Shown one piece after another: positions 5,392 through 53,237 of a stretch of 64,000 nucleotides of DNA; the first letter of the stretch is position 1, and each line of letters begins with the position of its first letter. The translations under genes and the position numbers were made by a program. This stretch comes from Hemerocallis citrina (Eukaryota > Streptophyta > Magnoliopsida > Asparagales > Asphodelaceae). The notes beneath the pieces were generated by a model that saw only the letters and a program-made list of their open reading frames with translations, was not told where the DNA came from and made no database searches. The DNA lies in contig CM030358.1 in NCBI GenBank assembly GCA_017893485.1, positions 149,061,363-149,125,362 on the forward strand, read 5' to 3'.

Positions 5392-5461
<70 letters not shown>
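5392..5461. repeat. TA microsatellite, left flank of giant element 1
   Basis: About 35 uninterrupted TA dinucleotides directly abut the left inverted repeat of the giant Mutator-like element. An equally long TA tract (21097-21165) abuts the other end. The element therefore seems to sit inside a TA microsatellite, which hides its target duplication. Confidence 0.95.
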
Positions 5462-5466
<5 letters not shown>

Positions 5467-5695
5467 TCTTCCGTTGCAAACGGGTCTGTGCACTCCGTTG
5501 CAAACGGGTTTGTGTGCACAGACCCGTGCGAACTTTAATCTGGACCGTTGGATCTTTGATCCAGCGGCCCATATATTTTTTAATAATATTTTGCCTTAAC
5601 CCGTCGTTGGGAATGACGGGTTAAGGCTATTTATAAAAAAATATAGCCTTAACCCGTCGTTCACAAGAATGGGTTAAGGCACTCTAAATTCATTT
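5462..5695 (+). repeat. left terminal inverted repeat of giant element 1
   Basis: The sequence matches the reverse complement of 20895-21096 with small indels. It contains two imperfect palindromes with arms GCCTTAACCCGTCGTT and AATGACGGGTTAAGGC (near 5593-5680). These are the same hairpin class that forms arrays in the middle of the element. Confidence 0.8.
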
Positions 5696-6170
5696 AAATC
5701 TGCATACAGATCATCTTCTTCGACGACTCTCTCCCACTCTCTATCTCTTTTCTTCGACGAACCCAAAGCAAAGAAAACCCTATTCCTTGATCTAAACACA
5801 AACCTGTCCTCCTCCGTCCGCTCCCTCTCCTCTCTCCCAATATCTACTCCAAACATTGAAACCCAACTCTCTCATCCCCTATTCGAAAGCCAATCGAAAC
5901 CCTAGTTCGGCCCCAAATTGAATCATTGGCTAAATTCGGACTTATTTTGTAAGGTATTGACTATTTCTTTACCTTAGTAGATATATTTGTGTTTATTTTT
6001 CAATTTGTGTATACTAAATTATTTAGAAAGTGGGCAAAAAATTATTTGCCTTAGTAATTTGTAGATGTAGAATTGGGAAGATTTTTAATATATTCAATTG
6101 CCGAAAATTTTTGTTTGCCTTAGTAATTTGTAGAACTAGAATTGTATATACGAAATTATTTAGAAACTTT
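5696..6170 (+). promoter_or_regulatory. inward-facing leader at the left end of giant element 1
   Basis: A pyrimidine-rich 5'-UTR-like stretch (CGACGACTCTCTCCCACTCT, CGAAACCCTAGTTCGG) ends in a conserved candidate splice donor, TTTTGTAAGGTATTGAC, near 5947-5963. The reverse complement of 20600-20890 has the same order, including TTTTGTAAGGTAATGAC. I infer that each end supplies the promoter, the leader exon and the start of a 5'-UTR intron for the gene reading inward. The matching acceptor for the left gene would be GGTACATAG just before the ATG at 8269. Confidence 0.45.
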
Positions 6171-8140
6171 TCAGTGCGGTTATGGTTGAAAACCTTGCAA
6201 ACGACCGTAAAAAAATACGAAACTTTGCGAGTAGGTTGGTCTCACGTAGTACAAGCCACCCCAAGTTGTAGAAGTGAGTTTCGACTCACGGTTCGCGAGA
6301 TACGGCCGCGTATCGCTTTTGGTTGAAAAAACCAAGTAAAGCGGTATCTGGCCGTATCTCGCAAACCGTGACTCGAAATTTGCTTCTACAAGTTGGAGTG
6401 GCTTGTGTTACGTGAATTCGACCAAGTTGCAAAGTTTTATAAATTTTGGATGCCGCTTGTGCGGTTTTCTCACGTTTATCTTTTTATAAGTAAATGAGTT
6501 AGAACTTTTTCAGTAAGGTTAGACTAGATTACCCTTCAAACGACGTCAAAAAAATACGAAACTATGCGAGTTGGTTGGTGCCACCTATCAGAAGCCAACC
6601 CAACTTGCAGAAGTGAGTTTCGACTCACGGTTCGAGAGATACGGCCGCGTATCGCTTTTGGTTGAAAAAAACCAATAAAGCGGTACACAGCTGTATCTCG
6701 CAAACCGTGACTCAAAACTCGCTTCTACAAGTTCGGGTGGCTTGCGCTACGTGAATTCGACCAAGTTGGAAAGTTTTATAAATTTTGGATGCCTTAGTAA
6801 TTTAGTTTTGTTTGTGTTGTTTTTTCACGTCCGATATATACGAAATTATTTAGAAACTTTTCAGTGCGGTTATGGTTGAAAACCCTGCAAACGACCGTAA
6901 AAAAATACGAAACTTTGCGAGTAGGTTGGTCTCATGTAGTACAAGCCACCCCAAGTTGTAGAAGTGAGTTTCGACTCACGGTTCGAGAGATACAGCTGCG
7001 TATCGCTTATGGTTGAAAAAACCAAGTAAAGCGGTGCCCGGCCGTATCTCGCAAACCGTGAGTCGAAACTCACTTCTACAAGTTCGGGTGGCTTGCGCTA
7101 CGTGAATTCGACCAAGTTGAAAAGTTTTATAAATTTTGGATGCCGTTTGTGCAGTTTTCTCACGTTCATCGCATTAGAAGTTAATGACTTAGAATATTTT
7201 TATTGCGGTTAGAGTTGAAAACCTTGCAAACGGCCTCCAAAAAATACGAAACTTTGCGAGTAGGTTGATCTCACGCAGCACAAGCCACCCCAACTTGTAG
7301 AAGTGGGTTTTGATTCACAGTTCGAGATATAAGGCCGTGTATCGCTTTTGGTTTAAAAAATCTAATAAAGCGGTATACGGCCGTATCTCGCAAACCGTGT
7401 GTCGAAATTCACTTCTACAAGTTCGGGTGGCTTGCGGTATGTGAATTCGACCAAGTTAGAAAGTTTTATAAATTTTGGATACTGTTTGTGCGGTTTTGTC
7501 ACGTTCCTCGCATTAGAAGTTAATGACTTAGAATATTTTTAGTGCGGTTAGAGTTGATACCCTTGCAAACGGCCTCCAAAAAATACGAAACTTTGCGAGT
7601 AGGTTGATATCACACAGCACAAGTCACCCCAACTTATAGAAGTGAGTTTCGATTCACGGTTCGAGATATAAGGTCGCGTATCGCTTTTGGTTTAAAAAAA
7701 CCTAATAAAGCGGTATACGGACGTATCTCACAAACCGTGAGTCGAAATTGATTTGTACAAGTTCGGGTGGCTTGCTCTACGTGAATTCGTCGACCAAGTT
7801 GGAAAGTTTTATAAATTTTGGATGTCATTTGTGCGGTTTTCTCACGTTCCTCGCATTAGAAGTCAATAACTTAGAATATTTTTAGTGCGGTTAGAGTTGA
7901 AAACTTTGCAAACGGCCTCCAAAAAATATGAAACTTTGCGAGTAAGTTGATCTCACGCAACACAACCCACCATAATATGTAGAAGTGGGTTTTGATTCAC
8001 AGTTCGAGATATACGGCCGTGTATCGGTTTATTTAGGTTTTTTACAACCAAAAACGGTACACGCCCGTATCTCTCCAACAGAGAGTTGAAACTCACTTCC
8101 ATAAGTTGGGGTGACCTGTGCTACGTGGATCTGACCAAAT
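6170..8140. repeat. left subterminal array of six palindromic ~340-bp repeats
   Basis: Six tandem diverged units are seen, with centres near 6325, 6670, 7020, 7355, 7700 and 8035. Each holds a roughly 150-180 bp inverted repeat whose arms read from ACAAGCCACCCCAACTTG through GAGTTTCGACTCACGGTTCG to GAGATACGGCCGTGTATCGC, and then back in reverse. Between palindromes is a spacer with TTTTATAAATTTTGGATGCC and a (C/G)CAAACGGCCTCCAAAAAAT motif. The array lies wholly in the inferred leader intron. It has no coding frame of its own. The same core recurs at the right end and in giant element 2. Confidence 0.85.
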
Positions 8141-8268
8141 TGACTTTTATTGCTTTTTTTTGTTGTCATTTGTGTTTTTTTTTCCCACAATCTCGGTATA
8201 TTTATTGATGATAAATAACTGGATGTAACGTGTACCAACCACATTTAAATTTTTTGGTACATAGATAA

Positions 8269-10512
8269 ATGGCTAGAACAAGGCAACCGAGAAGCCCGTT
8301 CGGTACCACTAGTGGCGCACCAACTACTGAGGTAAGATTGATTATTATTATTGATTTAAAATACTCATATGTAACATTATCTCAATAATAACATTTGTTA
8401 TCTTTATTCGTGTAGGTTGGTGGCCGTCAATCCACATTACTGGGGCAGGTCCGTCGTCCTCGGTTCTCGTTACACCACCTGGACCCGTGGACACAAACTT
8501 ACTCACCTTGCAACCCAAACACCGATCCGAAGTCGGGTAGAATGGGTCCGATAAGAAATATAACTTCCGGAAGCACGCGGTTCTTCCTTTTGACCCCCGT
8601 ATCACGCCGTACTTAGTGGAGGCCGGTTTCTGCGGAGCAAAATTCATGAGTTCAGTGAAGCTAGATCGGCCGCTACTTACAACTCTTGTCCAGCGATGGA
8701 GGCCGGAGACCCACACATTCCACCTACCAGTGGGTGAGATGACCGTGACCCTCCAAGATGTGGCAATGATAACTGGGCTACCAATAGATGGGGTCGCCGT
8801 GACGGGGAACATGGACTTCGATCGAGGTGAAGTTGTTCGTGATTTGCTCGGTATGGACCTCAAGTTGATAGTTCTCCAAAGAAGAGAGGCCGTTGAAAAA
8901 AAAATCCTCGATAATGTTCTCGCAGATATTGATGAAGATTTATTGTATGAACAAATAGAAACTGCGAAAGATAAAGCGGAAGCTGAAGTTATGGATGAAA
9001 CTTTTGATGGTAAATCACTGAACATTAGTTGGTTGAAATTTCTGTTCGAGGAGGATTATTTGGCCCCCGATTCGGACGAGCAAACCCTAACCTACTATGC
9101 ACGTGCATACATTTTTAGTATGATAAGGGAAGTGATCTTCCCGTACTCATCCGGATCAATCGTGCCGCTAATGTACCTACGGTTGCTGGAAGATTTTCGT
9201 TATGCGGGTCGTTTCAGTTGGGGGAGTGCGGCACTGGCACTACTATATAGGAATTTGTGCACATGTTCTTTAGGTGGCGTACAAATGGGTGGCCCGATGG
9301 TGCTACTGCAGATCTGGAGTTGGGAACACATCCACATCGGACGTCCCCGTACTATTGAGGTTACACCGGATTGATTGGCCGACCCGGGAGTGCCGGAGTT
9401 GTTACCTCCTCTAAGAGCATATTGGGCGGGGCGGCACACGTGGGTCGATAACCCACGCCAATCTTTAACCTACTACAGAGATGAGTTAGATAACCTACGG
9501 GACAAGTTCGTCAATTGGAAATCGTACTCGACCGCCAGGTTGCAAAGGGTTCCACCGATCTGTTTAGACAGTGCCCTTTGGTTGACGGCTGCACCACTTG
9601 TGAATTTTGGAGTTGTCGAGTTCCAATATCCTGATAGAGTCTTGCGGCAATTTAGATATCAACAAAAGATTCCCGATGTCAGGTGTTATGATAAAAAGTT
9701 GCACTAGGTGAGGGGAACGGGACGAGTGCCCAACTTCGATTGGGCTGATTACCATCGTTACCATGTAGCCAATTGGAACACCATGCGGCGTCAAATAACA
9801 CCGAATATGATGTTCGTCGCGATACCGTATGATGGCTCCCTCCAACATACGTACATGATGTGGTACAAGCGGGTAACACGGTTGTATGTATCTCCAAAGG
9901 CTGCTGTACCAGCCGGTGTGCAGATTCTGATTCTCCCAATCCAGGCAGAACCAGCTCCAGCATATTCCTCCTCCCAGCTGATGTACCAACCAAAGGCTGA
10001 GACATATCGAAAAATGGTTAGTCAAATTTCATATAGTTGGTATGCATGTACTGTAATTTAAGGTGGGTGATGTGTTAAGTATGCATAATGTTTAAATTGA
10101 AATTTTCAACCAAATGTAGATTGAAAACACATGGGAGAACGTTCGAACAACTGCTCGCGTCTTAAAGAGTAAGGTACCCGAGAGCTTTAAGGAGATAATG
10201 CGGGAGATGCTAACACCGTGCCGTCGTACTCTTGAGGACGCGGGTGAAGGTCCGCAACTTGAGGCGTATTTGAAAGCCAACGTGCCAACAACGGATTCTA
10301 GGCGAAAGAGCGTGACAAGACAGGGAATTCACATCGCCGAGCCACAACAAGTGCAACAACAGTAAAATCCTGAAGAAGTTGAAATGGAGCAGTGGTCGGA
10401 TGACCTTGAATCCCCCGGGACACAAGGCAGACTGCAAAATCCTTAAAGGAAGCGGAACCCGCCCTATCAATTCACACCAAGCGGTCGCAAGCCGCGTGGC
10501 CGTAAACGGTAG
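8269..10512 (+). pseudogene. plant mobile domain (PMD, aminotransferase-like/MAIN-type) protein of giant element 1
   Basis: Three exons are inferred: 8269-8331 (MARTRQPRSPFGTTSG, donor GAG|GTAAG), 8416-10016 (acceptor GTGTAG, donor ATG|GTTAGT) and 10120-10512 (acceptor AATGTAG). Exon 2 carries the PMD hallmarks: LVQRWRPETHTFHLPVGEMT, LQDVAMITGLPIDGVAVTG, WGSAALALLYRNLC, GPMVLLQIWSWEHI and LTYYRDELDNLRDKFVNW. The tail is basic (PSGRKPRGRKR). Breaks: a frameshift at about 8425-8440, TAG at 8538-8540 where relatives have Trp, TGA at 9372-9374, TAG at 9705-9707, and at least two stops in exon 3. PMD proteins are known both as host silencing factors (MAIN, MAIL1) and as transposon passengers; their biochemical role in transposition is not established. 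Its position opposite the transposase suggests an accessory protein. Confidence 0.85.
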
Positions 10513-10934
10513 TATCTAATACTCTTTAGTAGTTTAGCATTTGGTTGTTGATTTTGTTATTCCAATAACTAATGCATAGTTTGTTTCTATGTTGATAAAT
10601 TGTTGTAGGTAAATACCGGGCATGCTGTGCAAGCCAACGTGAAGAACGCCTTTATTACTATTTTTTTATTTTGGACATGTGCAACTTTATATGTATAATT
10701 TTTGTGTAAATTTTGGATAATTGTATTGATTTGAATTAAGTATGTAGTTTGGTTGACATTGTACATTTGTATGCTTTAAAATTCTTGTGAAGTTATCTGT
10801 TGTATTATATACATTGATGTGATGTGAATTTGTGAACAAAATTTGGTGAAGTTGTATTTGTATCAACAAAAATGTATATAGCCAAACAGAGACAAAAGTG
10901 ATGCACAAATATGTATACTAAACTCGTTATTGAC
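10513..10934 (+). other. 3' region of the PMD pseudogene
   Basis: AT-rich DNA after the PMD stop, with TTTATATGTATAATTTTTG and similar runs that could serve as polyadenylation signals. No other gene is visible. Confidence 0.35.
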
Positions 10935-11525
10935 GATGATTGGTTAATTAAGTGTAGCCCGTTATTCGTGATGACGGGTTAAATAGAGAGATATTGACAG
11001 TCCTTTAGAAGCCTACAGACCAAGTCTTAATAAAGTACTGCCAATATCGCTCTTCTTAACCCGTTATTGTGAACAACGGGTTAAGATCACTTAACCCGTT
11101 CTTCACAACAACGGGTTAAGTAGAGCAATATTGGCAGTCCTTTATCCCCTACAAACCAAAGTACTGCCAATATCGCTCTACTTAACCCGTTATTGTGAAT
11201 AACGGTTTAAGTGATCTTAACCCGTTATTCACAACAACGGGTTAAGTAGAGCGATATTGGCAGTACTTTATCCCTCTACATATAAAGTCATCATAATGGA
11301 CTGTCATTATCTCTCAACTTAACCAGTTATTGGCGTTAACGGGTTATGTTTGCTTAACCCGTTATCCACAACAACGGGTTAAGTAGAGAGATATTGGTAG
11401 GACTTCACTGAAGTTCTCATAATATAATGCCAAAATCTATCTACTTAACCCGTTCTTGTGAATAACGGGTTAAGGTCACTTAACTCGTTATTCAGAATAA
11501 TGGGTTAAGTAGAAAGAAATTTTTA
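10935..11525. repeat. hairpin array A1: alternating palindromes, period ~125 bp
   Basis: Two kinds of palindrome alternate. Type A has arms CTTAACCCGTT and AACGGGTTAAG around a short AT-rich loop and often comes in close pairs. Type B has arms AGCGATATTGGCAGT and ACTGCCAATATCGCT around a 25-40 nt loop with CCTACA(G/A)ACCAA. About four to five units are present with arms kept complementary despite changes, for example paired changes in the loops and GTTCTTCACAACAAC against GTTATTGTGAACAAC. No coding frame crosses the array. Confidence 0.85.
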
Positions 11526-11699
11526 TGCTTTCTACAACTTTCTTTTCTCCCTTTGCGAACATTGTCTCCTGAACTCTGCAAAGTGACATTCATATGCCAA
11601 TAATTGTTTATATTTTTTTATTAATTTTCATTTATTGCCACGTAACTAACCAATATAAAATCGTTAACATTAACGGTGGTGTAAAAGTTTAAAAAATAA

Positions 11700-13350
11700 A
11701 ATTTGATAACTAGCCTAGGGTTAGAGTTAGGGTTAAGTAAGCTAGGGGTTGGTGTAGGGTTAGGGTTAGGGTAAGCTAGGGTTAGGGTAAGCTAGGGTTA
11801 AGGGTTAAGAGCAAGTGGCTGTTTTTTGTTTTGATTAATTAGGATAATATTTGTAGCTCTCCGGTCTAAAACGCAATGAATTTTTTCTATTATTGGGTTC
11901 TACATGTGATCATCCATATGTGGGGAGTACAATATGATGTGGTTCTACATGTGGTTCTACATGGGTTCTACATGTGGGGTTCTACTTATGGAATTTTATC
12001 AACTCATGGATTCCATAAGTAGAATCCAACATAACAGTAGAATTGTTAGGGTTATTGTTAGGGTTAGGGTTATATCTTTGTAGAGTGAAATGTAATAGTA
12101 GAATCGTACTTTTCTTGCTCGGTCCTTGCTCTTTTTCTCTCCATAGTTCCCTCTTCACTCAGATAGATTTTGGTAAGTCTATGTCGAGGAATGGAGCGTT
12201 CATTTAGTGGGCACCACATGTAGATCCTCACATGTAGAACAAGTCCATAATCGGTCTATTATTAGATTTCACTATACAACATGTGGAACCACATGTACAA
12301 CATGGCCATAACCCTAACATGTAGTACAAGGGGTTAACTTGCTTTTACAAAAATAGGGTTACGGCTTGGCAGCACCCTAGGGTTACAGTAGGGTTACGGC
12401 TAGGGTTAGAATAGATCTCTCTACATTAGGGTTAGAGATTAGTTCGTAGGGTTATTTACAATTTTTAATAAATTTTTTCATATTTTCAACTATATTATTT
12501 AATTTTAGAATGTTTAAAATTACTCTAACCCTACTGTAACCCTACTTTAACTATCCAACCTTACTTAACCCCCTAATGTAACCCTACGAACTACTCTAAC
12601 CTACTCTAACCTTATCTCTAACCTACTCTACCCTACTCTATCCTTATTTATTGTGAACCAAGTTCCTCTAATTTGAGTATTTTTTTATATTTCAACATTT
12701 TTAACACTCAAAGTTTTAAGAAGTTGGATTTTACATAACCCGTAACCCTATTTTTACCCTAAGAACTACTTTAACCCTACCGTAACCCTACAATAACCCT
12801 GTAACCCTAGCCGTAACCCTACAAGTTCGTAGGGTTACATTTGGGTTAGAGATTAGTTCGTAGGGTTATTTACAATTTTTAATAAAATTTTTCGTATTTT
12901 CAAAATTATTATTTAATTTCATAATGTTTAAAATTACCCTAACCCTACTGTAACCCTACTTTAACTATCCAAATCTACTGTAACCCTACTGTAACCCTAC
13001 AAACTACTCTAACCTACTCTAACCTTATCTCTAACATACTCTATTATTTATTTTCATATTGTTTAAAATTACTCTAACCCTATTTTCATAATATCTCAAC
13101 TTAACATGTCATTGGTTCGACGGGTTAAGTACACCTTTATTTATTTATTTGGGTTATATTTATTTTTTGTGAACCAAGTTCCTCTAATTTTAGTTTTTTT
13201 TTAAAAATATCATCTTTTTCAACACTCAAAGTTTTAAGACGTTGGATTTTACAAAACCCGAAACCCTATTTTTACCCTAAGGACTACTTTAAGCCTACCG
13301 TAACCCTACAATAACCCTGTAACCCTAGCCGTAACCCGTTGACACTGTAA
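11700..13350. repeat. telomere-like tracts in opposing orientations, centre of giant element 1
   Basis: Degenerate AGGGTTA repeats run on the + strand at 11715-11815, 12045-12075 and 12340-12470. The opposite strand type (TAACCCTA, CTACTGTAACCCTAC) runs at 12520-12650, 12740-12815 and 12935-13085, with more at 13260-13335. Between them at 11895-12320 are many copies of (C)TACATGTGG and CACATGTAGA. Part of the block (about 12470-12660) is repeated at 12860-13050. The repeats are irregular, so this is not a fresh telomere cap. Confidence 0.8.
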
Positions 13351-13609
13351 GTTTTAAACCGAATTCGTTGAATGTACGTAAATGTTATAAAAATTTATTT
13401 GTTTACTTTAAAAGTTCAAATTGTGTAACGAACTTCTGTGGATAAGTGATTATATAAAATTTTATGAACAAATTTCTTGTAATGTGCTAAGGTTAGAGGG
13501 TTTTAGTAGGGTTAAAGTAGTGTTTAAATAATTTATAATAAATTGTTTTCATTTATTGAACTACATTATATATTATATTTACAAACATTTTTTACATTTT
13601 TTTCCAAAC

Positions 13610-13975
13610 AATGTTAAAATTATTAGCCAATATATGTCTACTTAACCCGTTATTAAGGATGACGGGTTAAGTACATTTAACCCGTCATCGTTAATAACGG
13701 GTTAACATATATTGGCACTGCTTCATCATCTACAGACCAAGTTCGCATAAATTACTGCCAATATTTGTCTACTTAACCCGTTGTTGGTGATGACGGGTTA
13801 AGTACATAACGGGTTAAGTAGACACTTATTGGCAGTGCTTCATCATGTACAGACCAAGTATGCATAAAGTACTGCATATATTTGTCTACTTAACCCGTTG
13901 TTGGTGATGACGGGTTAGGTACACTTAACCCCTCATCACCAACAACGGGTTAAGTAAACATATATTGGCAGAGGT
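13610..13975. repeat. hairpin array A2
   Basis: More type A palindromes (arms CTTAACCCGTTRTT and GATGACGGGTTAAG) with type B half-sites (ATTGGCA(G/C)TGCTTCATCA, ACTGCCAATATTTGTCT). The pattern is the same as at 10935-11525, on the far side of the telomere-like block. From 13976 to 14472 there is only T-rich sequence with short GAGAAGTG(C/T)ATCAA repeats. Confidence 0.8.
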
Positions 13976-14472
13976 TTATGAATACTTGGTCTGTATATTA
14001 CTGTCGTTGTTCCTGCATTTTGAGAGGTGTATCATATTGCTGTTCATGCTTGCTGTCCTTGTTGCTGCATTTTGAGAAGTGCATCAAAGTTTTGAGAAGT
14101 GTATCAATGTATTGAGAAGTGTATCAACATTTTCTTCTTGTCTTCATTTCCTTTTTTTTGCCTTCTTGTTTTCTTGCCTTCTTGTTTTCTTGCCAATCTT
14201 TTCTTCTTGTCTTCATTATTTCCTTCTTGTTTTCTTGCACTTCAATGCTTCCTTCTTCATTTTCCTATAACTATGCCTCTTGAGTACAATGAAGAAAAGA
14301 AGGAAGAAAAAAAAAAGGGAGGAGACACATTTCTTGAAGGGGGAAGAAGTTTGAGTTCTAAAAAAAAACTGAGTTCAAAGTGAGTCTCCTTCAACTGAGT
14401 TCTTCATAACATTGTTTCAGAAAGAAGCTGAAGATGCAGAAGTAGAGAGACATATGCATGTCTACTTTAGCG

Positions 14473-14965
14473 TACAAGTGCATGCTGGGTTTCTTTCAAG
14501 GGGTAGGGAGGACTGCTGACTCTGCCTTTTTTTTTCTTCATTCCCCTTACTCTTCTTTTTTGGGGCTTTTTGAATGAATGCATAAGTAGCAATTCTCCTC
14601 CCTTCATACACATTCGTTCCCTATTGTTACACATAGTGCAACAGTTCTCTGGTTTCGTAGGACGGAGTAGTGGTGGTTGTGACAATGTATTCATGGTACT
14701 TTTCAACTTCTTGGCATGCACACCTCACAATCGTGCAACAAATAGTACGAATATGAAGAGTGCGTGTCAAGAAGTTGTCAAGTACTTTGAATATACGGTT
14801 ACACCCACTACTACTTTATCCCACGAACCGGAGAATTGCTGCCTCTGTGTAATAGTAGTGAACTAAATTGTATACAGGGGGATAACTGCTACTTATGCAT
14901 TCAAAAAAAGGCAGTGTCAGCAGTCCTTCCTACCTCTTTGAGAAGAAACCCAGCATGTACTTGTA
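14473..14965. mobile_element. foldback element nested in giant element 1
   Basis: The ends are inverted copies: TACAAGTGCATGCTGGGTTT at 14473 and, reversed, TACAAGTACATGCTGGGTTT ending at 14965. Complementarity goes on inward through GGACTGCTGAC, GCATAAGTAGCA, TTCTCTGGTTTCGTAGGA and ACTTCTTG to the middle, so the whole 490 bp can fold on itself. The left arm has an extra insertion of about 45 bp near 14520-14565. There is no coding frame. It lies in a spacer between hairpin arrays and has no sequence in common with them, so it is read as a later insertion. Nothing notable is seen from 14966 to 15355. Confidence 0.7.
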
Positions 14966-15355
14966 TATATACTAACTTAAATGCAAATTTTGGTGAAAGT
15001 ATCAAAGAATGACTTTGTAATATCAATTAGCTTTAGATATGTATGCATTTTATGTATGTTCAATTTACATGTATTTGCCAGTTTGTAATGTATGATGTAC
15101 AAAGCTGTTATAAGATATAACCTGTATCCCTATATTCTCCGAACTTTATCTTGGAAATTTGAAGAGTTGTACCACAAAGGCGAAGACACTGCAAATATCA
15201 ATCAACCTAATGGGTTAAGTATCTCAAGATTGATGTGAATTGCTGAATGAACAAATTATCATCTGTAGAAGTTGTTGTGAATGAACAAATTTTGTGAAGT
15301 TGTATATGTATCAACAAAAGCACATAGAGCCTACATAGACGAAAGTTCTGTCAAA

Positions 15356-15700
15356 AACTCTCAACCCGTTATTGACGATGACGAGTTAAGTGATCTTAAC
15401 CCGTCATCACCAATAACGGGTTAAGTAGATTGATATTGGCAGGACTTCATCCCCTACAGACCAAATACTAATAAAGTACTGCCAATATCTATCTACTTAA
15501 CCCGTTATCTTCAATAACATGTTAAGTGATTTTAACCCGTTATCCCCAATAACGGGTTAAGTTGAGAGAAATTGGCAGTGCTTTATCAATACTTGGTCTG
15601 TAGGGTATGCAGTCTTGCCAATATCAATTCACTTAGCCCGTTATTGGTGATAACGGGTTAAGTTATTTTAATACGTTATCCCCAATAACGGCTTAGGTTT
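15356..15700. repeat. hairpin array A3
   Basis: Type A palindromes (CTTAACCCGTTATC and CAATAACGGGTTAAG pairs) and type B half-sites (TTGGCAGGACTTCATCCCCT, AAGTACTGCCAATATC) in the same order as in arrays A1 and A2. The array ends 600 bp before the 3' end of the transposase gene. Positions 15701-16326 are AT-rich sequence without a recognisable feature. Confidence 0.8.
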
Positions 15701-16326
15701 ATCCGATTTTTGCAGTATTATCTTCAAAATGTATGTTTGCATAAATTTTCACAATTTTCCACAAATTAAAAAAATCCAACAGCATAGATATATTGCAGAA
15801 ATACACAATCTCGACAAACACATAAAATTCACTCACAACCTTCAACACAAATAATAAATCTATACACATCGGCATCCCAAAAAAATCAATTACAAAAAAA
15901 TTCACAAATAGTTCGGGTTGCCCAAATTGCACACATCTTCAAAATCCACAAATTTCAACATAAATAAACAGTCGTTACCCAATTACAATATCAAAACCCA
16001 CAACAACATATGTGGCTTACAAATACACAAAATGCACACATACAGAGATTACACTCTTATTAAATACACCAGTAATCTAATTGTACCAAAAAGATACGTT
16101 CAATTAACCACATATATACAATCAAAAGTAAGGAATTTTTCAATGCATTGATTCTTTCCATGGGCACGATTTTGTTTCATTCCGGACCTACACCAAAAAA
16201 TATAAAAAATTGGGTTAATAATCAAGTCGAAATTAATAATTATCTTCACATCAAAATAAAAAAGTAAGCAATTATTTGGTGTTTATCTTCAAAATTTGAT
16301 ATGACATACATAACACGAAAAACCCC

Positions 16327-18686
16327 TTAGCACGAATCTTCACCTTCAACATCGTCACTCTCTCCAGTGTTTGGAGCTTCTTCATACCCTACCGATCCAC
16401 TAAATAAGGGAGAAGAATGGGTTAGTATCGACTACAACAAGTTTAGATTCATTGAGTCCAATTAACAAATACTTAGTCTCTGATATATTACCTTGTCATA
16501 TTTTTTGGGCAATTTCGTGAATCGTGACATATGACACGAAGGCATGTCCTGCAAAGTCTTGGCCTCTTCGTTTTTTTGGCCTTCTCTGATAGAATTCAAC
16601 ATTTTTCCTTTAGGCCTCCCATTTGTGGTGCACTGCACAGGGTCCCCTACTTGTGCATGTGCATGTGCATGTGCTTGTGCATGTGCATATTCACCACTCT
16701 CCGGTTGTGCGCTACCTTCGTGTGGTGTCCTATTCCCGGATTCAATGTGAGCAAAGCCTTCGATTCCCTTGAGCATGTGGTCGAGCATGTACTTGTACCC
16801 TCGCTCTGAAGAACAACCAAGATCGACCAAATGTCTTGAGTGCATAGTCAGTTCACAATAACGAGAGGCAAAATTATCACCCATACTATTGGGAACCGGT
16901 ATACTGCTTCTTGTTAGTTGATCCCTGGTCCATCGCCTACAAATATATTGCTCGGATAGTGCGGTGTGATCTGTGAACCGAATAACTGCCAATAGATATT
17001 TGCAGGGAATGCCTACGAAGTCATACATGGCGCAAGGGCATTTAGCAATTTGACTGATTTTACAATAAGAAATCACCCTCCCCAGTTCAGAATTTCCACA
17101 AATGGTTACAGAATAAGCTGCATTATCCGGTGTATCCATACTCGCAATTAAACTCACATTAAGTAATAAGCTTTTTACAACTTCTTGTTGGAATTTGTAG
17201 AAAATCTTCAGTGTGTATGTTCCCGCCATTTGTGACTCTAACGGCCATTCGGTCTTCAATTTTGTCCTCTCCTCACGATTACGATGTGTTTCTTTAAGTT
17301 CATTGTGTCTTTGTTTTACTAACACTCGGTCAAAGATGACGGTAAATTCATGTAATGAGTACTTCTTATGAGTATGGTGCTTCAAGGATGAATGTAGCGA
17401 TTCGCTACGTTGGGTACTCAACATGCCGCCCCAAAATGAGTCTCTTGCGTACACGGGAGCCCATTTCTCGTAGATCTCAAATTTTTCCTTCAACCATTTG
17501 TTATTCTCAAGTTTGTACTGGGAAATCAAAATTTTCTACTTATGTTCAAATTCTGTTTTATATTCCGCCGTATAAATGATAGTTTTCAAAGCATCCCTAA
17601 ATTCGTCAATGTTATTCGGCATACGCACTTCATGCGGTAACTTATCCAAAATATGCCAAATGCAATATCTATGTGACGTGGTTGAGAAAACTTTAGAAAC
17701 TGTAGAAGTTATTCCACGATCCTCATCTGTCACGATGTTCATCGGATCGTGAGTCATTGCTCCTCGCCACTTTTCAAAGAACCACTCAAATGAGGATACC
17801 TTCTCATTTGGGATGAACCCACAACCTAGGAATATTGATTGCCAATGATGGTTGAATCCAACAAATGGTACGAACAACATTCCGTATCGGTTTGTGTTGT
17901 AGGTAGCATCAAAGCAGAAAACATCTCCAAATACTTCATAATTCTTTCTAGCGATACCATCCACCCAGACACAATGGGACAATCGGCCTTCGGGATCACA
18001 TTGGTAATCATAATAGAATAAAGGATTGGTCTCCTTTTTGGATTCAAAGAACTCAAGTAGCATTTGCCCGCCTTGTCCTTTTAAACCTTCCATCTCGTCT
18101 CTCCTGAGATTTCTGACATCGGTTTCAGTGAAACCAATTTTCTCATTACCTCTACTTGAACCTTGAAGAATAGGATTTGTTTGCATATAGGGACATTAGC
18201 TTCGGTAAGTTGACCAATTACTTTTTTATCTGTATTTGTCAATTCACGGTTTCGAGGTAGCAAGTGACGTCTACCGGGTGAAGTAAATTCGTGATTTTGT
18301 GGTTCATTAAATGAATAAAGAATCCACGATTTACTTTGTGAATTACTTTGTGGATTTAGTTTCACACGAACGAAAGATTTACAACCCGTTCTAGAAGTTG
18401 TTCCTCGTCTAGCTTCATTCTGATTATTCGGTTACTCCCCGGCTTTATTACAAACATATGATTTATCCACTACATCGTTTTCCTTGTAATTATTTCTATC
18501 CTTATGCATAAAGAATCTCGCACATTTGCAATATGATGAATAAAATTTTTCCGCTTCCTCTAGAGTGGGAAATGTCATACCAATCATCGATTTTAAGTGC
18601 TCGTCAACATGAGGAAGAAACTCGCCAATTTTTTGAGCATGAACAAATTTCTCTTCGGCAACAGAACTTTCTTCAAAACTATCCAT
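16327..18686 (-). pseudogene. Mutator-like transposase with FAR1-type DNA-binding and SWIM domains (giant element 1)
   Basis: The ATG is at 18684-18686 (MDSFEESSVAEEKF), right after the splice acceptor TTTCTTAG. The FAR1/WRKY-GCM1-type finger follows (FPTLEEAEKFYSSYCKCARF, SRTGCKSF). Then comes the MULE catalytic domain with FDATYNTNRYG (first Asp), NIVTDEDRGI (second Asp), HRYCIWHILDKL (C-x2-H motif) and RSESLHSSLKH (probable Glu), and a SWIM finger at CPCAMYDFVGIPCKY. A His-Ala/Gln repeat near 16630-16690 comes from a TGCATG microsatellite. The last exon is probably 16327-16395 (NTGESDDVEGEDSC). Breaks: TAA at 18432-18434, a frameshift near 18155, and TAG at 17536-17538. The first His of the finger's H-N-H pair reads Gln, and the SWIM His reads Tyr. 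It would cut and join the element's ends in the nucleus; this copy cannot. Confidence 0.9.
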
Positions 18687-18779
18687 ACCTAAGAAAGCGT
18701 GAAAAGGAGAACAGTTAGGGCTACTAAACCCATTACGAAATGTGATGATAACTTTCTAACTTTATTTACATATTATTAG

Positions 18780-20480
18780 AGAAACGTCACAAAACCGCAC
18801 AAACGGCATCCACAATTTATGAAACTTTGCAACTTACTTTAATTCACCTAGCACAAGCCACCGTAACTTGCAGAAGTGATTTTTGACTCACGGTATGCTA
18901 GATATGGTCATGTACCGCTGTATTTGGTATTTTTATAACCAAAAGCGACACGATTGTATCTCTCTGACCGTTAATCGAATCTTCAACCTACTACAAATTG
19001 GGGTTGCTTGATTTATGTTAGACCATCCGAGTTGCAAAATTTCGTATTTTTTTAAGGTCGTTTGAAGGGTTTTCTGGTATAACCGCAGTAAACGCGTTCT
19101 AAGTCATTAACTTCTAATGCGAGGAACGTGAGAAAACCCCACAAAACGGCATCCAAAATTTATAAAATGTTGCACCTTGCTTGAATTCACGTAGTGCAAG
19201 CCACCACAACTTGTACAAGTGAGTTTCGACTAACGGTTCGAGGGATACGGCCGTGTATTACTTTTTTTGTGTTTTTTTCAACCGAAAGCGATACACAGCC
19301 GTATCTCTCTAACCGTGAGTTGAAATTTACTTATAAAAGTTCGAGTTGCTTGTGCTACATGAGATTATCCTACTCGCAAAGTTTTGTATTTTTTGGATGT
19401 CATTTGAAGGGTTTTCTAATCTAATCGCACTTAAAAAATTCTACGTCACTAACTTCTAATGCGAGGAACGTGACAAAACCGCACAAACGGCATCCAAAAT
19501 TAATAAAACTTTGCACCTTGCTTGAATTCACGTAGCGCAAGCCACCCCAACTTGTACAAGTCAGTTTTGACTAACGGTTCGAGAGATACGGCCGTGTATC
19601 ACTTTATTTGGCTTTTTCAACCGAAAGCAATACATGGCCGTATCTCTATAACCGTGAGTCAAAATTGACTTATACAAGTTCGGGTTGCTTGTGCTACATG
19701 AGATCATCCTACTCGCAAAGTTTCGTATTTTTTGGATATTGTTTGAAGGGTTTTCTAATCTAACCGCACTTAAAAAATTCTAAATCACTAACTTCTAATG
19801 CGAGGAACGTGACAAAACTGCACAAACGGCATCCAAAATTAATAAAACTTTGCACCTTGCTTGAATTCACATAGCACAAGCCACCCCAACTTGTACAAGT
19901 CAGCTTCGACTAACGGTTCGAGAGATACGGCCGTGTATCACTTTATTTGGCTTTGTTTCAACCTAAAGCGATACACGACCTTACATCTCGAATCGTGAAT
20001 CGAAACCCACTTCTACAAGTTGGGGTGGCTTGTGCTGTATGAGATCAACCTACTCGCAAACTTTCGTATTTTTTGAAGGCTATTTGCAAGGTTTTCAACT
20101 CTAACCGCACTAAAAAAATTCTAAGTCAGTAACTTCTATTGCGAGGAACGTGAGAAAACAGCACAAACGGCATCCAAAATTTATAAAACTTTCCAACTTG
20201 GTCGAATTCACGTAGCGCAAGCCACCCGAACTTGTAGAAGTGAGTTTCGACTCACGGTTTGCGAGATACGGCCTTATACCGCTTTATTAGGTTTTTTTAA
20301 ACCAAAAGCGATACACGGCCTTATATCTCGAACCGTGAATCGAAACCCACTTCGGTGGCTTGTGCTGCGTGAGATCAACCTACTTGCAAAGTTTCGTATT
20401 TTTTGAAGGCCGTTTGCAAGGTTTTCTACTCTAACCGCACTAAAAAATTCTAAGTCATTAATTTCGTATAAATTGAACGT
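18780..20480. repeat. right subterminal array of five palindromic repeats
   Basis: Five diverged units in inverted orientation to the left array, with palindrome centres near 18920, 19270, 19610, 19950 and 20290. Each has arms with CAAGCCACC(C/A)CAACTTGTA, GAGATACGGCCGTGTATC and GCGATACACGGCCGTATCTC. The spacers contain TGCGAGGAACGTGA and CATCCAAAATTTATAAAACT. The array lies between the transposase start and the inward-facing leader of the right end. Confidence 0.85.
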
Positions 20481-20599
20481 GAAAAATCAACACAAATAAA
20501 ACTAAATTAGTAAGTCAAATATTACTACAGTTCTAAATTATTTTGGGCAAAGCATTTTTTTGGAACTACCTAAATAATTTACTTATAAAAAAATATTAA

Positions 20600-20894
20600 A
20601 ATCAACATAATTAACTCTAATAAGGCTAAGAAATAGTCATTACCTTACAAAATACAGATCGAATTTTGCCAATAGAACGATTTGTGGCCTTCGCACGGGA
20701 ATTGATTTGCTTTTGATGTAGATATTTGGAGAGAGAGATTGTATGAGAGTGGAAGAGGAGGAGTAGGGGCAAACGGAGGACGTTGAAATTTTTTTTGGGT
20801 TTTTGGGTTTGGTTTCGCCCAAAAAACGGGGATCTGTGCTAGGGTTTTTGGGTTTAGTTTCAACGATGAAGATGAAGGACTGTATACAAATCTA
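20600..20894 (-). promoter_or_regulatory. inward-facing leader at the right end of giant element 1
   Basis: It is the inverted counterpart of 5696-6000 at the left end and includes AAACCCTAGCACAGATCC and the candidate splice donor TTTTGTAAGGTAATGAC when read on the minus strand. It would drive the transposase. The acceptor in front of the ATG at 18686 fits a leader intron that spans the subterminal array. Confidence 0.45.
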
Positions 20895-21093
20895 AGATTA
20901 TATCTTTGCCTTAACCCGTCCTTGTCAACGACGAGTTAAGGCAATTTTTTAAAATTAAATTTTGCCTTAACCCGTCGTTTCCAAAGACGGATTAAGGCAA
21001 AATTTAATAAAAAATATACGGGCAAAGATCCAACGGCCCAGATTAAAGTTCGCACGGGTCTGTGCACACAGACCCGTTCGCAATGGAAGGAGA

Positions 21094-21096
<3 letters not shown>
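20895..21096 (-). repeat. right terminal inverted repeat of giant element 1
   Basis: The reverse complement matches 5462-5695, including GTGTGCACAGACCCGTGCG and two palindromes with arms GCCTTAACCCGTC and GACGGGTTAAGGC or close variants. Confidence 0.8.

Positions 21097-21165
<69 letters not shown>
21097..21165. repeat. TA microsatellite, right flank of giant element 1
   Basis: About 34 TA dinucleotides immediately follow the right inverted repeat, matching the tract on the left side. Confidence 0.95.
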
Positions 21166-46295: not shown

Positions 46296-46297
<2 letters not shown>

Positions 46298-46566: not shown

Positions 46567-46567
<1 letters not shown>

Positions 46568-46986
46568 TGCTCCATTGAATACGGGTTTGTTTTCACTGGG
46601 TTGGAAAACAGCGATCTCAGCCATTGGATCGCTCTTGATCGTGATCAGCGGCTCAGATCGCCTCCGCCCATCACCCGTTATCACTTAAGTGGCAGAAGGT
46701 TATTTTGGGAATTTTGTCCCAAATAACTCTTCGCTTGATTCGCTCTGAAAAATTGATATAACCTAGGCCGTTGTTCCTAACAATGGCCTAGGTGTTTTAA
46801 TAACGTCAAAGCGAATCAGGCGAAGAGTTATTTGGGACGAAATTCCCAAAATAACCCTCAGCCACTTAAGTGAGAACGGTGATGGGTGGAGGCGATCTGA
46901 GCCGATGATCATGATCAAGAGCGATCCAACGGCCCAGATCGCTGTTTTCCAACCCGTGAAAACAAACATGTTTTCAATGGAGCATT

Positions 46987-46990
<4 letters not shown>
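46567..46990. mobile_element. MITE derived from the giant element 2 family
   Basis: Long inverted arms of about 190 bp run from ATGCTCCATTGAATACGGGT through GGGTTGGAAAACAGCGATCT, ATTGGATCGCTC and GGGAATTTTGTCCCAAATAA to the centre, where a palindrome of the type CCTAGGCCGTTGTT and AACAATGGCCTAGG lies. GGGTTGGAAAACAGC, CATCTCAGCCATTGGATC-like sequence and GATCAGCGGCT are also at the left end of giant element 2 (48470-48535). It has no coding content. Confidence 0.8.
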
Positions 46991-48275: not shown

Positions 48276-48450
48276 GGGAAATGCTCCATTGAAACACAAA
48301 TGTTGTGAAAACTCGTGAAAACAACCTAGGCCGTTGTTGGGAACAACAGCTAGGTTATAATGCATTATAACCTAGGCCGTTGTTCCCAATGGCTTATATT
48401 TGTTTTCACGTTTTCCACGCTACAGTACGTTTTCAATGGAGCATTTTTCA
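48276..48450. mobile_element. small MITE with the CCTAGGCCGTTGTT palindrome
   Basis: The ends are GGGAAATGCTCCATTGAAA and its complement TTTTCAATGGAGCATTTTTC. The centre is two copies of the palindrome unit (AACCTAGGCCGTTGTTGGGA and AACCTAGGCCGTTGTTCCCA). It shares terminal bases with the MITE at 46567 and the palindrome with giant element 2, from which only the heptamer TATATAT separates it. Confidence 0.75.
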
Positions 48451-48457
48451 TATATAT

Positions 48458-49097
48458 GGGATTTGCTCAATGGGTTGGAAAACAGCCATCTCAGCCATTG
48501 GATCTTGGTAGATCATGATCAGCGGCTGTGATCGAAACCCACTAAGTCTCCCACTAACGCTTCCAAAAGCGGAGGGGTAATTTCGTAAGTTCACGCCAAA
48601 AAACGTTTCAGACTTAGCATTTTTTGGCGTGGAATTTTTTTTGTCGAAAAAATTACTTAGGCCGTTGTTTCCAACAACGGCCTAGGTTGTTCTTTTTTAT
48701 AAAAAAAATACCTTGGCCGTTGTTGGAAACAATGGCCTAGGTATGTACAAGTGTTTTTCCAAACACTTGTACATACCCAGATCTCCCTCACTCTGTCTTC
48801 GTCACAAACTCTCTATCTCTTTCTCTTGAGCTCCCGAAACCCATCCCCAAACCCTAGTTCTCTCTCCCAACTCCTTGGCCTCGATTTCTTTGCCTTCTCG
48901 ATCTCCCCCTCTTGTGGAAACCTCTCTATCTCTCTCTCCCTCTCCCAAATACCTCAAACCCTAACGTAGGCCCCAAACACCCAAATCATCTGAACCCTAG
49001 CACAAATTCTCCAACCCCCTAGCCTGTACAAGTTGTTCGTCTACAGCAGCGGCTTCTCACATCTTCGACAACTCTCTATCTCTCTCTTTTGACCAGG
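48458..49097 (+). promoter_or_regulatory. left terminus and inward-facing leader of giant element 2
   Basis: The terminal region contains two CCTAGG-type palindromes at about 48655-48745 (arms TTAGGCCGTTGTTTCC, GGCCTAGG). A pyrimidine-rich leader follows (CTCTATCTCTTTCTCTTGAG, AACCCTAGTTCTCTC) and ends in a candidate donor GACCAG|GTATTTAC near 49096. The same layout in giant element 1 supports a promoter plus leader exon. Confidence 0.45.
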
Positions 49098-49319
49098 TAT
49101 TTACTTAATCAGAATTTACTATAATGAACTATGTTAATTTCTTGAATTATTTTTCAATTTTGGAGTTGGGTTTTTTTTGTATTATGCATAGTAGTCTATA
49201 ATTTAGAGAGTATACAATTAGCTCTGATCATGTATGTTGTATATATTTTGTTGACTTTTTTATAGATGTAGTGTTAGTTGTAGTAATGGAATATAGGAGA
49301 AGGAAATAAACGAGATCCA

Positions 49320-49935
49320 AAAATTCAATTTTCACGAGTAGGTCGGACTCGCCGCGTAGAAGGTAACAAAACTTGTAGAAGCGATTTCTGTCTCACGGTT
49401 TGTGAGATACGTCCGTTTATCACTTTTATTCAATACAACGGATATAAAGCGATACACGGCCGTATCTTTCAAACCGAGAGTCAGAACTCACCTCTGTAAG
49501 TTCCGCTAGCTTGTGTTTGGTGTGCCAGACTTGACAGCCAAATTTAAGAATTTTTCCTTCTCGTTTTTTGTTGTTTTGATGCATATATGCAAAACCTTCC
49601 ATCTACCTCGAAACTTTTTTAGTACGGTCTCAATACAAAAATGCTTAAACGAAGTCCAAAAAATACGAAACGATGCGAGTAGGTTGGGCTAACCATTCAC
49701 AACCCAACGCAACATTTGCAGGTTCCGACCCACGGTTTGCGAGATACGTCAATGTATCGCTTTCCGCTCTTTTTTAAAGAGTAAAAGCGATACACGGTCG
49801 TATCTTTCAAACCATGGGTCAGAAATCACTTCTACAAGTTGCGTTGGCTTGTGTTTGGTGTGCCAGAGGTGACGGCTAACTTTTGGAATTTTTGCATCTC
49901 GTTTGTGTTATTTTGACGCGTATAAGAGAAGTTTT
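49320..49935. repeat. left subterminal palindromic repeats of giant element 2
   Basis: Two units with palindrome centres near 49435 and 49775. They share TTTGTGAGATACGTCCGTTT, GCGATACACGGCCGTATCTT and AAACTTGTAGAAGCGATTTC-type arms with the repeats of giant element 1, although the termini differ. The units lie between the candidate leader donor and the PMD start codon. Confidence 0.8.
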
Positions 49936-50017
49936 GAAATTTTTGCATCTCGTTGGTTTGTGTTCGCTATTTTTCGGTAAATAATTAGTTTTATATATGC
50001 AAACTTATTACAAAGAA

Positions 50018-52162
50018 ATGGCTAGAACAAGGGGAACTGGAAGGACATCTCGGGAAGCTCGGGGGGAACATTCCACAGAGACCATGAGAACTATTAATTT
50101 GTATTGTGCCTAATTTTGTATTTAGTGATATTGTTATTAGACTAATAATAATTGTGTTTTTGGGTTTGTGTAGGTTGGTGCATCCTCTTCGATAGCACCA
50201 CGTCGTGGTCCAGGACCAATATTTTTCCGTGAACTGAGCTTGCAAGACCGCCACAGATCCGCTGCAGTGTGGGGTGGGACAACGCGAAGGTGTAATTTTT
50301 GCCCACGAGACCATGAAGGTGCACCCACATATTGTCGAGTACCTAGTAGCGGCCGGTTTCTACGGAATCACCATAATGGGTCAGGTTAAACTCGACCGAG
50401 CACTTCTCTCAGCACTCGTGGAGCGATGGAGGCCATAGTCGCACACGTTCCATCTACCGGTCGGAGAGATGACGGTATCACTACAGGATATAGCGATGAT
50501 CTCCGGTCTTCCAATAGATGGGTTGGTCGTGACGGGTAATATAAACTTTGATAAAATAGAGATGTGTAATGAACTGCTCGGTACAGAGTTTGATGAGACT
50601 GCCGTGGAAAATAAGGAAATTTTTGTCGGACAATCAATCCGACTATCTTGGTTGAAGGGATGTTTTGATGGGACGTTGACCAATGCATCGCCCGACCACT
50701 ATGTATAGTCCTACACCAGATGTTACATTCTAACGGTGCTTGGAGGGGTTCTCTTGCCTAACTCATCCGGGGATACGGTACACCTCATGTATCTACGATT
50801 GCTCGCTGACCTAGGCTCAGCTGTCGGTATAGCTGGGAAAGTTGCGCGTTGGCAACGCTATACAGGTCGTTGTGTTATGTAGCGCTAGATGGCACGGAGA
50901 TGACCGGTCCGATGGTTTTGTTACAGATTTGGTCATGGGAGCGACTGTACTTGGGTCGTCCCCGCATTAGGAGACCGGCGGACGGTTGGATGGCTGAACC
51001 AGAAAATCCTTATATGTTAGCACCCTTAGGGGTATATTGGCCTGGTAGCCGGAGTTACAAAGACAACCCAAAAGGTGTGCTAACATACTACAGAGATGAG
51101 CTCGACCAACTACGAGAAGAGTTCGTGATTTGGGTGCCGTATGCACCCGATCGGGTGGGAAGATTACCACCGATGTGCACGACCGGATCGCAGTTGTGGA
51201 TGATGACGACTCCATTCATCAACTTTGGTAAAGTGGAGCATCCGCGGCCGGAGAGAATCCTTCGTCATTTCGGTCTTCAACAAGATAATCCCCCAAGATG
51301 CGCAAACCTATACGACCATGAGTTACACGCCGTGAGGGGTACCGGTCACATGCCTACTCATGATTGAGCAAATTTCCATCGTGTTCACATTACAGAATGG
51401 AACGAGCGACAATTTGAACTTGTAATTATCGATGTAGAAGAGTACGATGGCAGAGTGCAAGGGAAGTACATGCAATGGTTCAGATCAATTACACGTTTGT
51501 ATATCTCTCCCGATACAGAACTACCTGCTGGTGTTCAACGATTAATTGAGAAGAGAGAGATTGAACCACCATCCGCCTATTCTAGTTTACAACCCATGTT
51601 CCAACCGAAGGCCTCAGCTATACGTACAGTAGTAAGTATAATCTTCAAATTTCTTTGAATGTTTGTTATATTTAAAGTTACTGAATTGTTTACTTTTCCG
51701 AATCTGTATAATTGTATTTTTTGGTGTTTTTTATTTTAGATTGATAATACGATGGACATGGCAAAAGAATGCGAGGACGTAATCAAAAGTAATGCGGGTA
51801 CGGCTATGAAAAGGTTCGCTCATAGGATGTTCTCTTCGTGCCGTACCAATTTGGATGTTTTGGGAGAGGCTGAACGTTTGGATCGAGCATTAAGGTCACC
51901 GAGAGGGTGACGTAAAAGTGTGAGGGGTAGGCCAGCTGCATTGAGGGGGCAACAATGGGAACGTGAGCTGAGAGAACAACAAGCTTCAACTTCACATTCA
52001 TCTCAAGAACAAGAGCAACAAGATGAGAATGAAGAGAGGGTTGTTGGAGACGTACAAGAGGAGGGAGGAGAAGAAGAAATCCCTGAATCGTCAACCCCGC
52101 TCCGGCGTCGAAATCCTACTCGGAAGAGGCGAGCACCACAACCATACACGCCCGGTTCTTAG
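50018..52162 (+). pseudogene. plant mobile domain (PMD) protein of giant element 2
   Basis: Begins MARTRGTGRTSREARG at 50018; the intron 1 donor is not clear, its acceptor is TTTGTGTAG at 50173. Exon 2 (50174-51631) has REFSLQ-like sequence (FRELSLQDRHRSAAVW), HPHIVEYLVAAGFYGI, FHLPVGEMTVSLQDIAMISG, RYSWESCALATLYRSLC, GPMVLLQIWSWERLYLGRPR and LTYYRDELDQLREEFVIW. Exon 3 (51740-52162) ends in an acidic/Gln part and a basic end (RRRNPTRKRRAPQPYTPGS). Breaks: frameshift near 50285, TAG 50436-50438, TAG 50706-50708, frameshift near 50822, TGA 51365-51367, TGA near 51910. Same position and exon plan as in giant element 1, so it is a fixed part of this element family. Confidence 0.85.
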
Positions 52163-52434: not shown

Positions 52435-52965
52435 TTTTTAGACCTAGGCCATTGTCTCCAATAACGGCCTAGGTTAGTTGTTGAAATTTTTATTTTCATC
52501 AATAAAATAACAGAGAGCAAGACTCCTATATTTTTATACCTTAGACCGTTGTCTCCAACAACGGCCTAGGTAGTAGACCAAATGTTGCACAATTTGGGGT
52601 GCTCTCTGACTTGTTGGAGTTAAAAACAACAAGTCAGAGAGCAAGACCCCTATATTTTTTATATCTTAGGCCGTTGTCTCCAACAACGGCCTAAGTAGTA
52701 GGCCAATTGTTTCACAATTTGGGGTGCTCTCTGACTTGTTGGAGTTAAAAACAGCAACAAGTCAGAGAGCAAGACTCCTATATTTTGTATACCTTAGGCC
52801 ATTGTCTCCAACAACGGCCTAGGTAGTAGGTCAAAAGTTGAACACATTGGGGTGCTCTCTGACTTGTTGGAGTTAAAAACAGTAACAAGTCACAGAGCAA
52901 GACCCCTATATTTTGTATACCTTAGGCCGTTGTCTCTAACAACGGCCTAGGTAGTAGGTCAAAAG
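52435..52965. repeat. hairpin array B1: alternating palindromes, period ~128 bp
   Basis: Type A has arms CCTTAGGCCGTTGTCTCC and CAACAACGGCCTAGG. Type B has arms GCTCTCTGACTTGTTG and CAACAAGTCAGAGAGC around a GAGTTAAAAACAG loop. Four type A palindromes and three type B palindromes alternate. The order and spacing are like array A1 of giant element 1, but the sequences of the arms differ. Confidence 0.88.
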
Positions 52966-53237
52966 TTGACCTTTTTGCTTTTTACAATTTTCTCTTCACT
53001 CTTTACGAATAATCTATGTGGAACTTTATACAAAAGATAGATGATCTATGCCTTTATATCGTTTATATATTTTTTTATTTTTCCATTTTTTCACACCTAA
53101 CTAACCATATATAATCACGATGTTTAAATATTTACAGAAAATACCAGAAAATATAACATAATCTTGTCATTTATAAAAAAACATTTTATTAAATATATTC
53201 TTATCACTAAAATGTACATTCTTCTGCTTAGCGTACA

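What the first reader, a model, noticed from the sequence alone, without database searches (positions are those of the whole stretch)
5462..21096. Giant Mutator-like transposon with a PMD protein in the place of mudrB
Seen: terminal inverted repeats in TA tracts, a PMD gene reading in from the left and a FAR1/MULE transposase reading in from the right, both spliced. Known: maize MuDR has two convergent genes, mudrA (transposase) and mudrB (accessory); PMD domains occur in host silencing proteins (MAIN/MAIL1) and in transposons. Inference: the PMD protein is the accessory factor of this element lineage, fixed because a second diverged element (48458-59487) has the same layout. PMD being shared between silencing factors and transposons raises the idea of an anti-silencing or targeting role.
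Basis: partly seen in the sequence, partly recalled or inferred. Interest (0 to 1): 0.85.

Follow-up and report, generated by a model that had tools for sequence, protein, structure and literature searches.

The report
PMD-carrying Mutator transposon with VANC-like system
A large plant jumping gene carries, besides its own cutting enzyme, a second gene whose protein is predicted to fold like a known plant factor that binds DNA and switches off silencing, and the element is dotted with a family-specific DNA motif that could be its target, so an idea about how such elements escape their host can now be tested.

Summary
5463-21096 is a 15.6-kb Mutator-like element (E1) inside an (AT)n tract, with ~2.4-kb foldback-rich inverted repeats, a three-exon PMD gene from the left and a FAR1/MULE transposase from the right. 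Both genes are broken. A diverged relative (E2, ~48458-59487) has the same layout but has lost ~350 bp of one end. PMD is no chance capture. In the window's own 3.8-Gb genome, two capped hit lists give 27 PMD-transposase pairs within 30 kb (0.33 expected), 25 convergent. Of 12 transposase copies sampled, 8 have a PMD; in 4 the element breaks off first. PMD and transposase distances agree across 21 elements (r 0.88-0.93). PMD is under purifying selection much like the transposase.

The parts
5392..5462 (.). (AT)n target tract, left flank of E1
   Evidence: TRF, 35.5 copies, 100%
5463..8145 (+). E1 left terminal inverted repeat: ~690-bp outer part, then array of ~339-bp units (6153-8142), several of them hairpins
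8269..10515 (+). E1 PMD gene, exons 8269-8331, 8416-10016, 10120-~10515; pseudogene (in-frame stops, early frame break)
   Evidence: PF10536; splice sites; stops
10970..11521 (.). palindrome tandem array 3' of PMD (TTAACCCGTYRTT half-sites)
11716..13043 (.). telomere-like TAGGGT/CCCTA-rich centre; stretches around it (11520-12208) similar in E2
13642..13953 (.). central palindrome cluster
15361..15698 (.). palindrome cluster 3' of transposase
16462..18686 (-). E1 transposase: FAR1 DNA-binding + MULE domain; pseudogene (stops, one frameshift)
18754..21096 (-). E1 right terminal inverted repeat, same architecture (array 18779-20465)
21097..21165 (.). (AT)n target tract, right flank of E1
48458..49990 (+). 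E2 left terminal repeat with CTAGGCCGTTGTT palindromes (48657-48740) and stretches like E1's repeat units
50018..52161 (+). E2 PMD gene, pseudogene
52460..52968 (.). E2 palindrome array 3' of PMD (128-bp period)
55175..56050 (.). E2 palindrome array 3' of transposase (128-bp period)
56420..58618 (-). E2 FAR1/MULE transposase, pseudogene; 3' limit approximate
58619..59487 (-). E2 right terminal repeat, outer ~350 bp missing
46567..46990 (.). small non-autonomous foldback element between (TA)n/(GA)n and (AT)n tracts; end 85% like E2's over 68 bp; one E2-type palindrome at its centre
48280..48452 (.). second small foldback element next to TA repeats with two E2-type half-sites

Best explanation
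E1 is a decayed copy of an abundant, FAR1/Jittery-type Mutator-like family that encodes two proteins: a transposase and a PMD protein. Shown: the PMD gene is co-inherited with the transposase, sits in convergent order, and is kept by purifying selection. Shown by prediction: the PMD domain has the fold of VANC21, a sequence-specific DNA-binding anti-silencing factor of Arabidopsis VANDAL MULEs. Inferred: the PMD protein binds the family-specific ~29-bp palindromes in the terminal repeats and beside the 3' ends of both genes, and through them keeps the element free of host silencing, as VANC does, so that the transposase is expressed and copies (including small copies carrying the palindrome) can move. 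The palindrome differs between the two related families seen, as VANC targets do.
Against: No binding, methylation or expression data. A shared fold does not prove shared function, and no sequence similarity between PMD and VANC21 was detected. E1's own model gives Foldseek E 1.1e-3, just above 0.001. The host PMD proteins MAIN/MAIL1 promote silencing (PMC5418596, PMC7156037), the opposite effect. The VANC21 motif printed in PMC5735166 (YAGTATTAY) is not the palindrome seen here. The palindromes could equally be transposase (FAR1-domain) sites. The two fold models share most of their alignment, so they are not fully independent. Across species the nearest sampled relatives differ: Asparagus for the transposase, Juncus/Carex/grasses for PMD, so co-inheritance is shown within this genome only.
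Confidence: 0.5

Rival explanations
1. The palindromes are binding sites of the FAR1-type transposase, used for end recognition and internally for autoregulation. The PMD protein is an accessory factor of a different kind, for instance an integration helper as proposed for MURB.
For: Palindromes lie in the terminal repeats and at the centre of a small non-autonomous element, as expected of a transposase site. The transposase has a FAR1 DNA-binding domain.
Against: Most sites lie internally, in clusters beside the 3' ends of both genes and between them, which I would not expect of end recognition. PMD itself has the predicted fold of a DNA-bound anti-silencing protein.
Confidence: 0.28
2. The PMD protein works without binding the element's DNA. 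It mimics host MAIN/MAIL1 and ties up their partners (such as PP7L), weakening host silencing in general.
For: PMD is shared with host silencing proteins that act with PP7L (PMC7156037; PMC9899485). A counter-silencing role for TE-made PMDs has been proposed (PMC8616336).
Against: Does not explain the family-specific palindrome arrays or the fold match to a protein solved on its target DNA.
Confidence: 0.12
3. PMD is a chance capture with no role in the element.
For: MULEs capture host genes, and PMD capture by MULEs has been proposed (PMC5418596).
Against: Purifying selection, convergent layout in 25 of 27 pairs and co-phylogeny. E1 and E2 PMDs are sisters, as are their transposases.
Confidence: 0.02

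Closest known systems
MULEs of the MUDR/MDR/MUDRAVI2/MULE-Monocots groups with antisense PMD (table in PMC6446971, passages seen)
   Same: MULE transposase plus a PMD gene, sometimes, often or mostly in antisense according to group
   Different: Those groups are listed mainly with SWIM/CCHC fingers; FAR1 is noted there only for an oomycete subgroup. Here the transposase is FAR1-type; the plant FAR1/Jittery subgroup is listed without PMD.
VANDAL21 / VANC (PMC5735166, PMC10398659; passages seen)
   Same: A MULE with a second-gene product of the same predicted fold, and noncoding tandem arrays of short motifs that differ between related families. PMC6446971 already notes PMD and/or a DUF in half of the VANDAL group.
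   Different: No sequence similarity detected between PMD and VANC21. The motif here is a palindrome. Anti-silencing is shown for VANC and only inferred here.
MuTAnT / AutoMuTAnT of Medicago (PMC4486113, passages seen)
   Same: Jittery-like MULE inserted in TA microsatellites, with long modular foldback TIRs
   Different: 4.9 kb with one gene; no PMD in the passages seen
Abermu of barley and other plants (PMC9168764, outline and four sections read)
   Same: Large MULE with an extra ORF transcribed opposite to the transposase
   Different: MuDR-like transposase; ORFR not described as PMD in those sections and judged possibly unimportant for transposition
PMD-MULE fusion proteins (grasses, Amborella: PMC5418596; Actinidia P0053/P0057 and Senna P0044)
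   Same: PMD carried by a MULE
   Different: Fusion on one strand with another transposase type; P0053/P0057/P0044 fall elsewhere in both trees, on long branches in the transposase tree

Membership tests
Mutator-like elements (MULE) | MULE/DDE transposase domain | tested here: met
   PF10551 E 1.2e-25 in E1
Mutator-like elements (MULE) | long terminal inverted repeats | tested here: met
   75% over 2427 columns
Mutator-like elements (MULE) | 8-11 bp target-site duplication | tested here: inconclusive
   both flanks are perfect (AT)n, so a duplication cannot be seen
FAR1/Jittery group of MULEs (PMC6446971 table) | N-terminal FAR1 domain | tested here: met
   PF03101 in E1 and E2
FAR1/Jittery group of MULEs (PMC6446971 table) | C-terminal SWIM or CCHC finger | tested here: inconclusive
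   not called by Pfam in the broken E1/E2 copies; SWIM present in the relatives P0067 and P0070
FAR1/Jittery group of MULEs (PMC6446971 table) | one ORF, as listed there (a description rather than a definition) | tested here: not met
   two conserved genes
FAR1/Jittery group of MULEs (PMC6446971 table) | transposase falls in the Jittery clade | not tested
   no named Jittery sequence was in the tree
MuDR proper | MURA-type transposase | tested here: inconclusive
   no MURA sequence was used; the transposase is FAR1-type and lies far from the fusion proteins P0044/P0053/P0057
MuDR proper | mudrB-homologous second gene | not tested
   no MURB sequence compared
Plant mobile domain proteins | PF10536 | tested here: met
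   E 1.3e-71, profile 1-347
VANC-type anti-silencing factors | VANC fold | tested here: met
VANC-type anti-silencing factors | sequence similarity to VANC21 | tested here: not met
   PMD profile finds no VANC21 chain at E<=10
VANC-type anti-silencing factors | family-specific motif arrays in noncoding DNA | tested here: met
VANC-type anti-silencing factors | sequence-specific DNA binding and demethylation in trans | not testable with these tools
   needs experiment

The most novel reading that the evidence does not exclude
PMD and VANC are one ancient family of sequence-specific DNA-binding chromatin factors, recognisable only by fold. MULEs use its members, together with family-specific palindrome arrays, as motif-guided anti-silencing systems well beyond the VANDAL elements, and the host silencing proteins MAIN/MAIL1 belong to the same family turned to the opposite use.
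Probability: 0.35. Interest if true: 0.9.

Novelty: new variant of a known kind. Interest (0 to 1): 0.74.

Why it matters
What the plant mobile domain does is an open question: a 2021 review calls it a domain of unknown function and its mode of action largely unknown (PMC8616336). A fold match to a DNA-bound anti-silencing protein, plus a named candidate target site in a high-copy family in which many PMD copies still have open frames, turns that into a simple binding and methylation test. If right, VANC is no isolated VANDAL invention, and silencing and anti-silencing proteins in plants share one DNA-binding fold.

Tried and rejected
MAIN/MAIL1 'DOWN' motif (CATGCAGTTT, PMC9899485): does not resemble the palindrome by eye; dropped. 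PMD by sequence against solved structures: nothing relevant. Host identity: the closest proteins in the trees are monocot (PMD: Juncus, Carex, grasses, support 93; transposase: Asparagus), but the species is not known. Clade A/B/C of the PMD was not settled because no named Arabidopsis references were at hand. E2-family genome searches did not complete (below); TIR and genome-wide palindrome searches were planned but, with the tool busy, never sent. The first within-family pN/pS misread minus-strand loci; it was redone and only the latter is used. Loci L001-L008, the best Pfam PMD hits in the genome, are long single-frame PMD proteins unlike E1's and were set aside. VIA rows other than VANC21 are short local matches. 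Rows dropped before the tree comparison: of 25 convergent pairs, 21 were used; two pairs more than 20 kb apart, one second partner 21.5 kb away and one pair 14.1 kb apart (20-stretch limit) were left out. Of 20 transposase copies planned for sampling, 12 were fetched.

Full report
WHAT IS THERE. E1 (5463-21096) is flanked by perfect (AT)n tracts. Its terminal repeats align at 75% over 2427 columns. Each holds an outer part of several hundred bp (~690 on the left) and then an array of ~340-bp units; in the left array four hairpins with ~130-bp arms were found. The PMD gene runs inward from the left (PF10536) with three exons, 8269-8331, 8416-10016 and 10120-~10515; as exact strings the four splice sites recur in 10, 10, 11 and 7 of 14 family copies looked at. 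The transposase runs inward from the right with a FAR1 DNA-binding domain and a MULE domain. Both genes carry stops and frame breaks. E2 (~48458-59487) has the same order, is 51% (PMD) and 56% (transposase) identical in aligned protein, is also broken, and lacks ~350 bp of its right end.

IS PMD A REAL PART OF THE ELEMENT? Four tests say yes. (a) The window lies in a 3.78-Gb genome. The E1 PMD ORF gave 140 scored matches, itself included, the others 82-89% identical (18,683 first-look candidates); the transposase MULE ORF gave 150, itself included, the others 84-92% (9,207 candidates). From these two capped lists 27 pairs lie within 30 kb of each other (0.33 expected), E1 included; 25 are convergent and two same-strand; one PMD is counted with two transposases and one transposase with two PMDs. 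(b) Twelve transposase copies were taken at fixed steps down the list without regard to PMD (12 of 20 planned). A convergent PMD was found in 8: six in the 4.7-9.7 kb slice, one nearer, one 15.7 kb off. In the other 4, similarity to E1 stops 1.5-3.7 kb beyond the transposase edge, in one case resuming about 7.5 kb further on, as after a nested insertion, so they do not count against PMD. (c) Distances between copies agree for the two genes: Mantel r 0.88 over 21 elements, permutation p 2e-4. Shared decay could cause that, so only parsimony-informative sites were then used: r 0.90-0.93, or 0.85-0.91 on transversions alone, against 0.885 between two halves of PMD itself. (d) pN/pS between E1 and E2 is 0.47 (0.41-0.54) for PMD and 0.45 (0.39-0.51) for the transposase. 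Synonymous sites are near saturation there (dS ~2.0 and ~1.1), but copies within the family give 0.36 (15 stop-free of 29) and 0.27 (10 stop-free of 19).

THE PALINDROMES. E1 carries 39 matches (up to 1 mismatch) to TTAACCCGTYRTT and the rest of the 64-kb window none (0.40 expected). E2 and two small elements beside it carry 20 matches to CTAGGCCGTTGTT (0.04 expected): 16 in E2, 4 in the small ones, none in E1. None of either kind lies in coding sequence as I drew it, and neighbouring inverted half-sites are 16 bp apart in 15 of 17 cases in E1 and 3 of 5 in E2. The inner part CCGTYRTT is shared, while the outer five bases differ: TTAAC in 19 of 25 in E1; CTAGG or TTAGG in 10 of 13 in E2. The clusters sit in the outer terminal repeats, beside the 3' ends of both genes and, in E1, at the centre; four of them are tandem arrays of 117-128 bp period. 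Seventeen slices of twelve genome copies of the E1 family hold 68 such cores, 47 with TTAAC and none with CTAGG; 11 of the 17 slices have the exact E1 half-site and 6 have none. A 0.42-kb non-autonomous foldback element whose end is 85% like E2's over 68 bp keeps one palindrome, at its centre. Short, family-specific motifs in noncoding tandem repeats are what VANC proteins bind in VANDAL elements (PMC5735166).

MECHANISM. Shown: co-inheritance within this genome, selection, motif distribution; fold by prediction. Inferred: PMD binds the palindromes and protects the element from silencing. The strongest rival is that the FAR1-type transposase owns the palindromes. The two are separable by one binding experiment.

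PRIOR WORK. PMD in MULEs is known (rice MULE, cited within PMC5418596). PMD genes antisense to the transposase are tabulated for several MUDR-related groups in PMC6446971, where the plant FAR1/Jittery subgroup is listed without PMD. Anti-silencing by TE-made PMDs was suggested in PMC5418596 and PMC8616336. TA-tract targeting and foldback TIRs are known from Jittery-like MuTAnT (PMC4486113). What is added here: a PMD gene fixed in a FAR1-type lineage, the quantitative co-evolution, the fold link to VANC21, and the family-specific palindromes. For all papers only the passages or sections named were seen.

LIMITS. The E1-family sample favours close relatives of E1. E2-family copies, TIR counts and genome-wide palindrome counts could not be obtained. 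Across species the two trees do not show the same nearest relatives. The two fold models share most of their alignment. No expression or methylation data were available.

Noticed in passing
46567-46990, 48280-48452 and 46296-46475: Small foldback elements next to TA repeats; the first two carry E2-type palindromes, and the first has an E2-like end.
   Followed up: partly
11716-13043 and 53288-54011: Telomere-like TAGGGT/CCCTA-rich repeats at the centre of both elements; nearby a 33-bp stretch is identical (11988-12020 = 54097-54129) although the elements are otherwise about 65-75% alike.
   Followed up: no
4520-4918 and 317-1372: hAT transposon remains: C-terminal dimerisation domain (PF05699) on +, and on - a long ORF without a Pfam match that looks hAT-like by eye.
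   Followed up: no
43048-44013: ORF with Transposase_28 (PF04195), a gypsy-type element part.
   Followed up: no
L001-L008: Long single-frame PMD proteins (667-1178 aa here) with charged C-terminal tails, four of them within 0.25 Mb on contig C7; look like host-type PMD genes rather than E1-type.
   Followed up: partly
proteins P0053, P0057 (Actinidia) and P0044 (Senna): PMD fused downstream of a different MULE transposase type in eudicots, beyond the grasses and Amborella named in PMC5418596; gene models not checked on DNA.
   Followed up: partly
L046, PMD-side end: A family copy whose end abuts a compound (TA)n(GA)n tract rather than pure TA.
   Followed up: no
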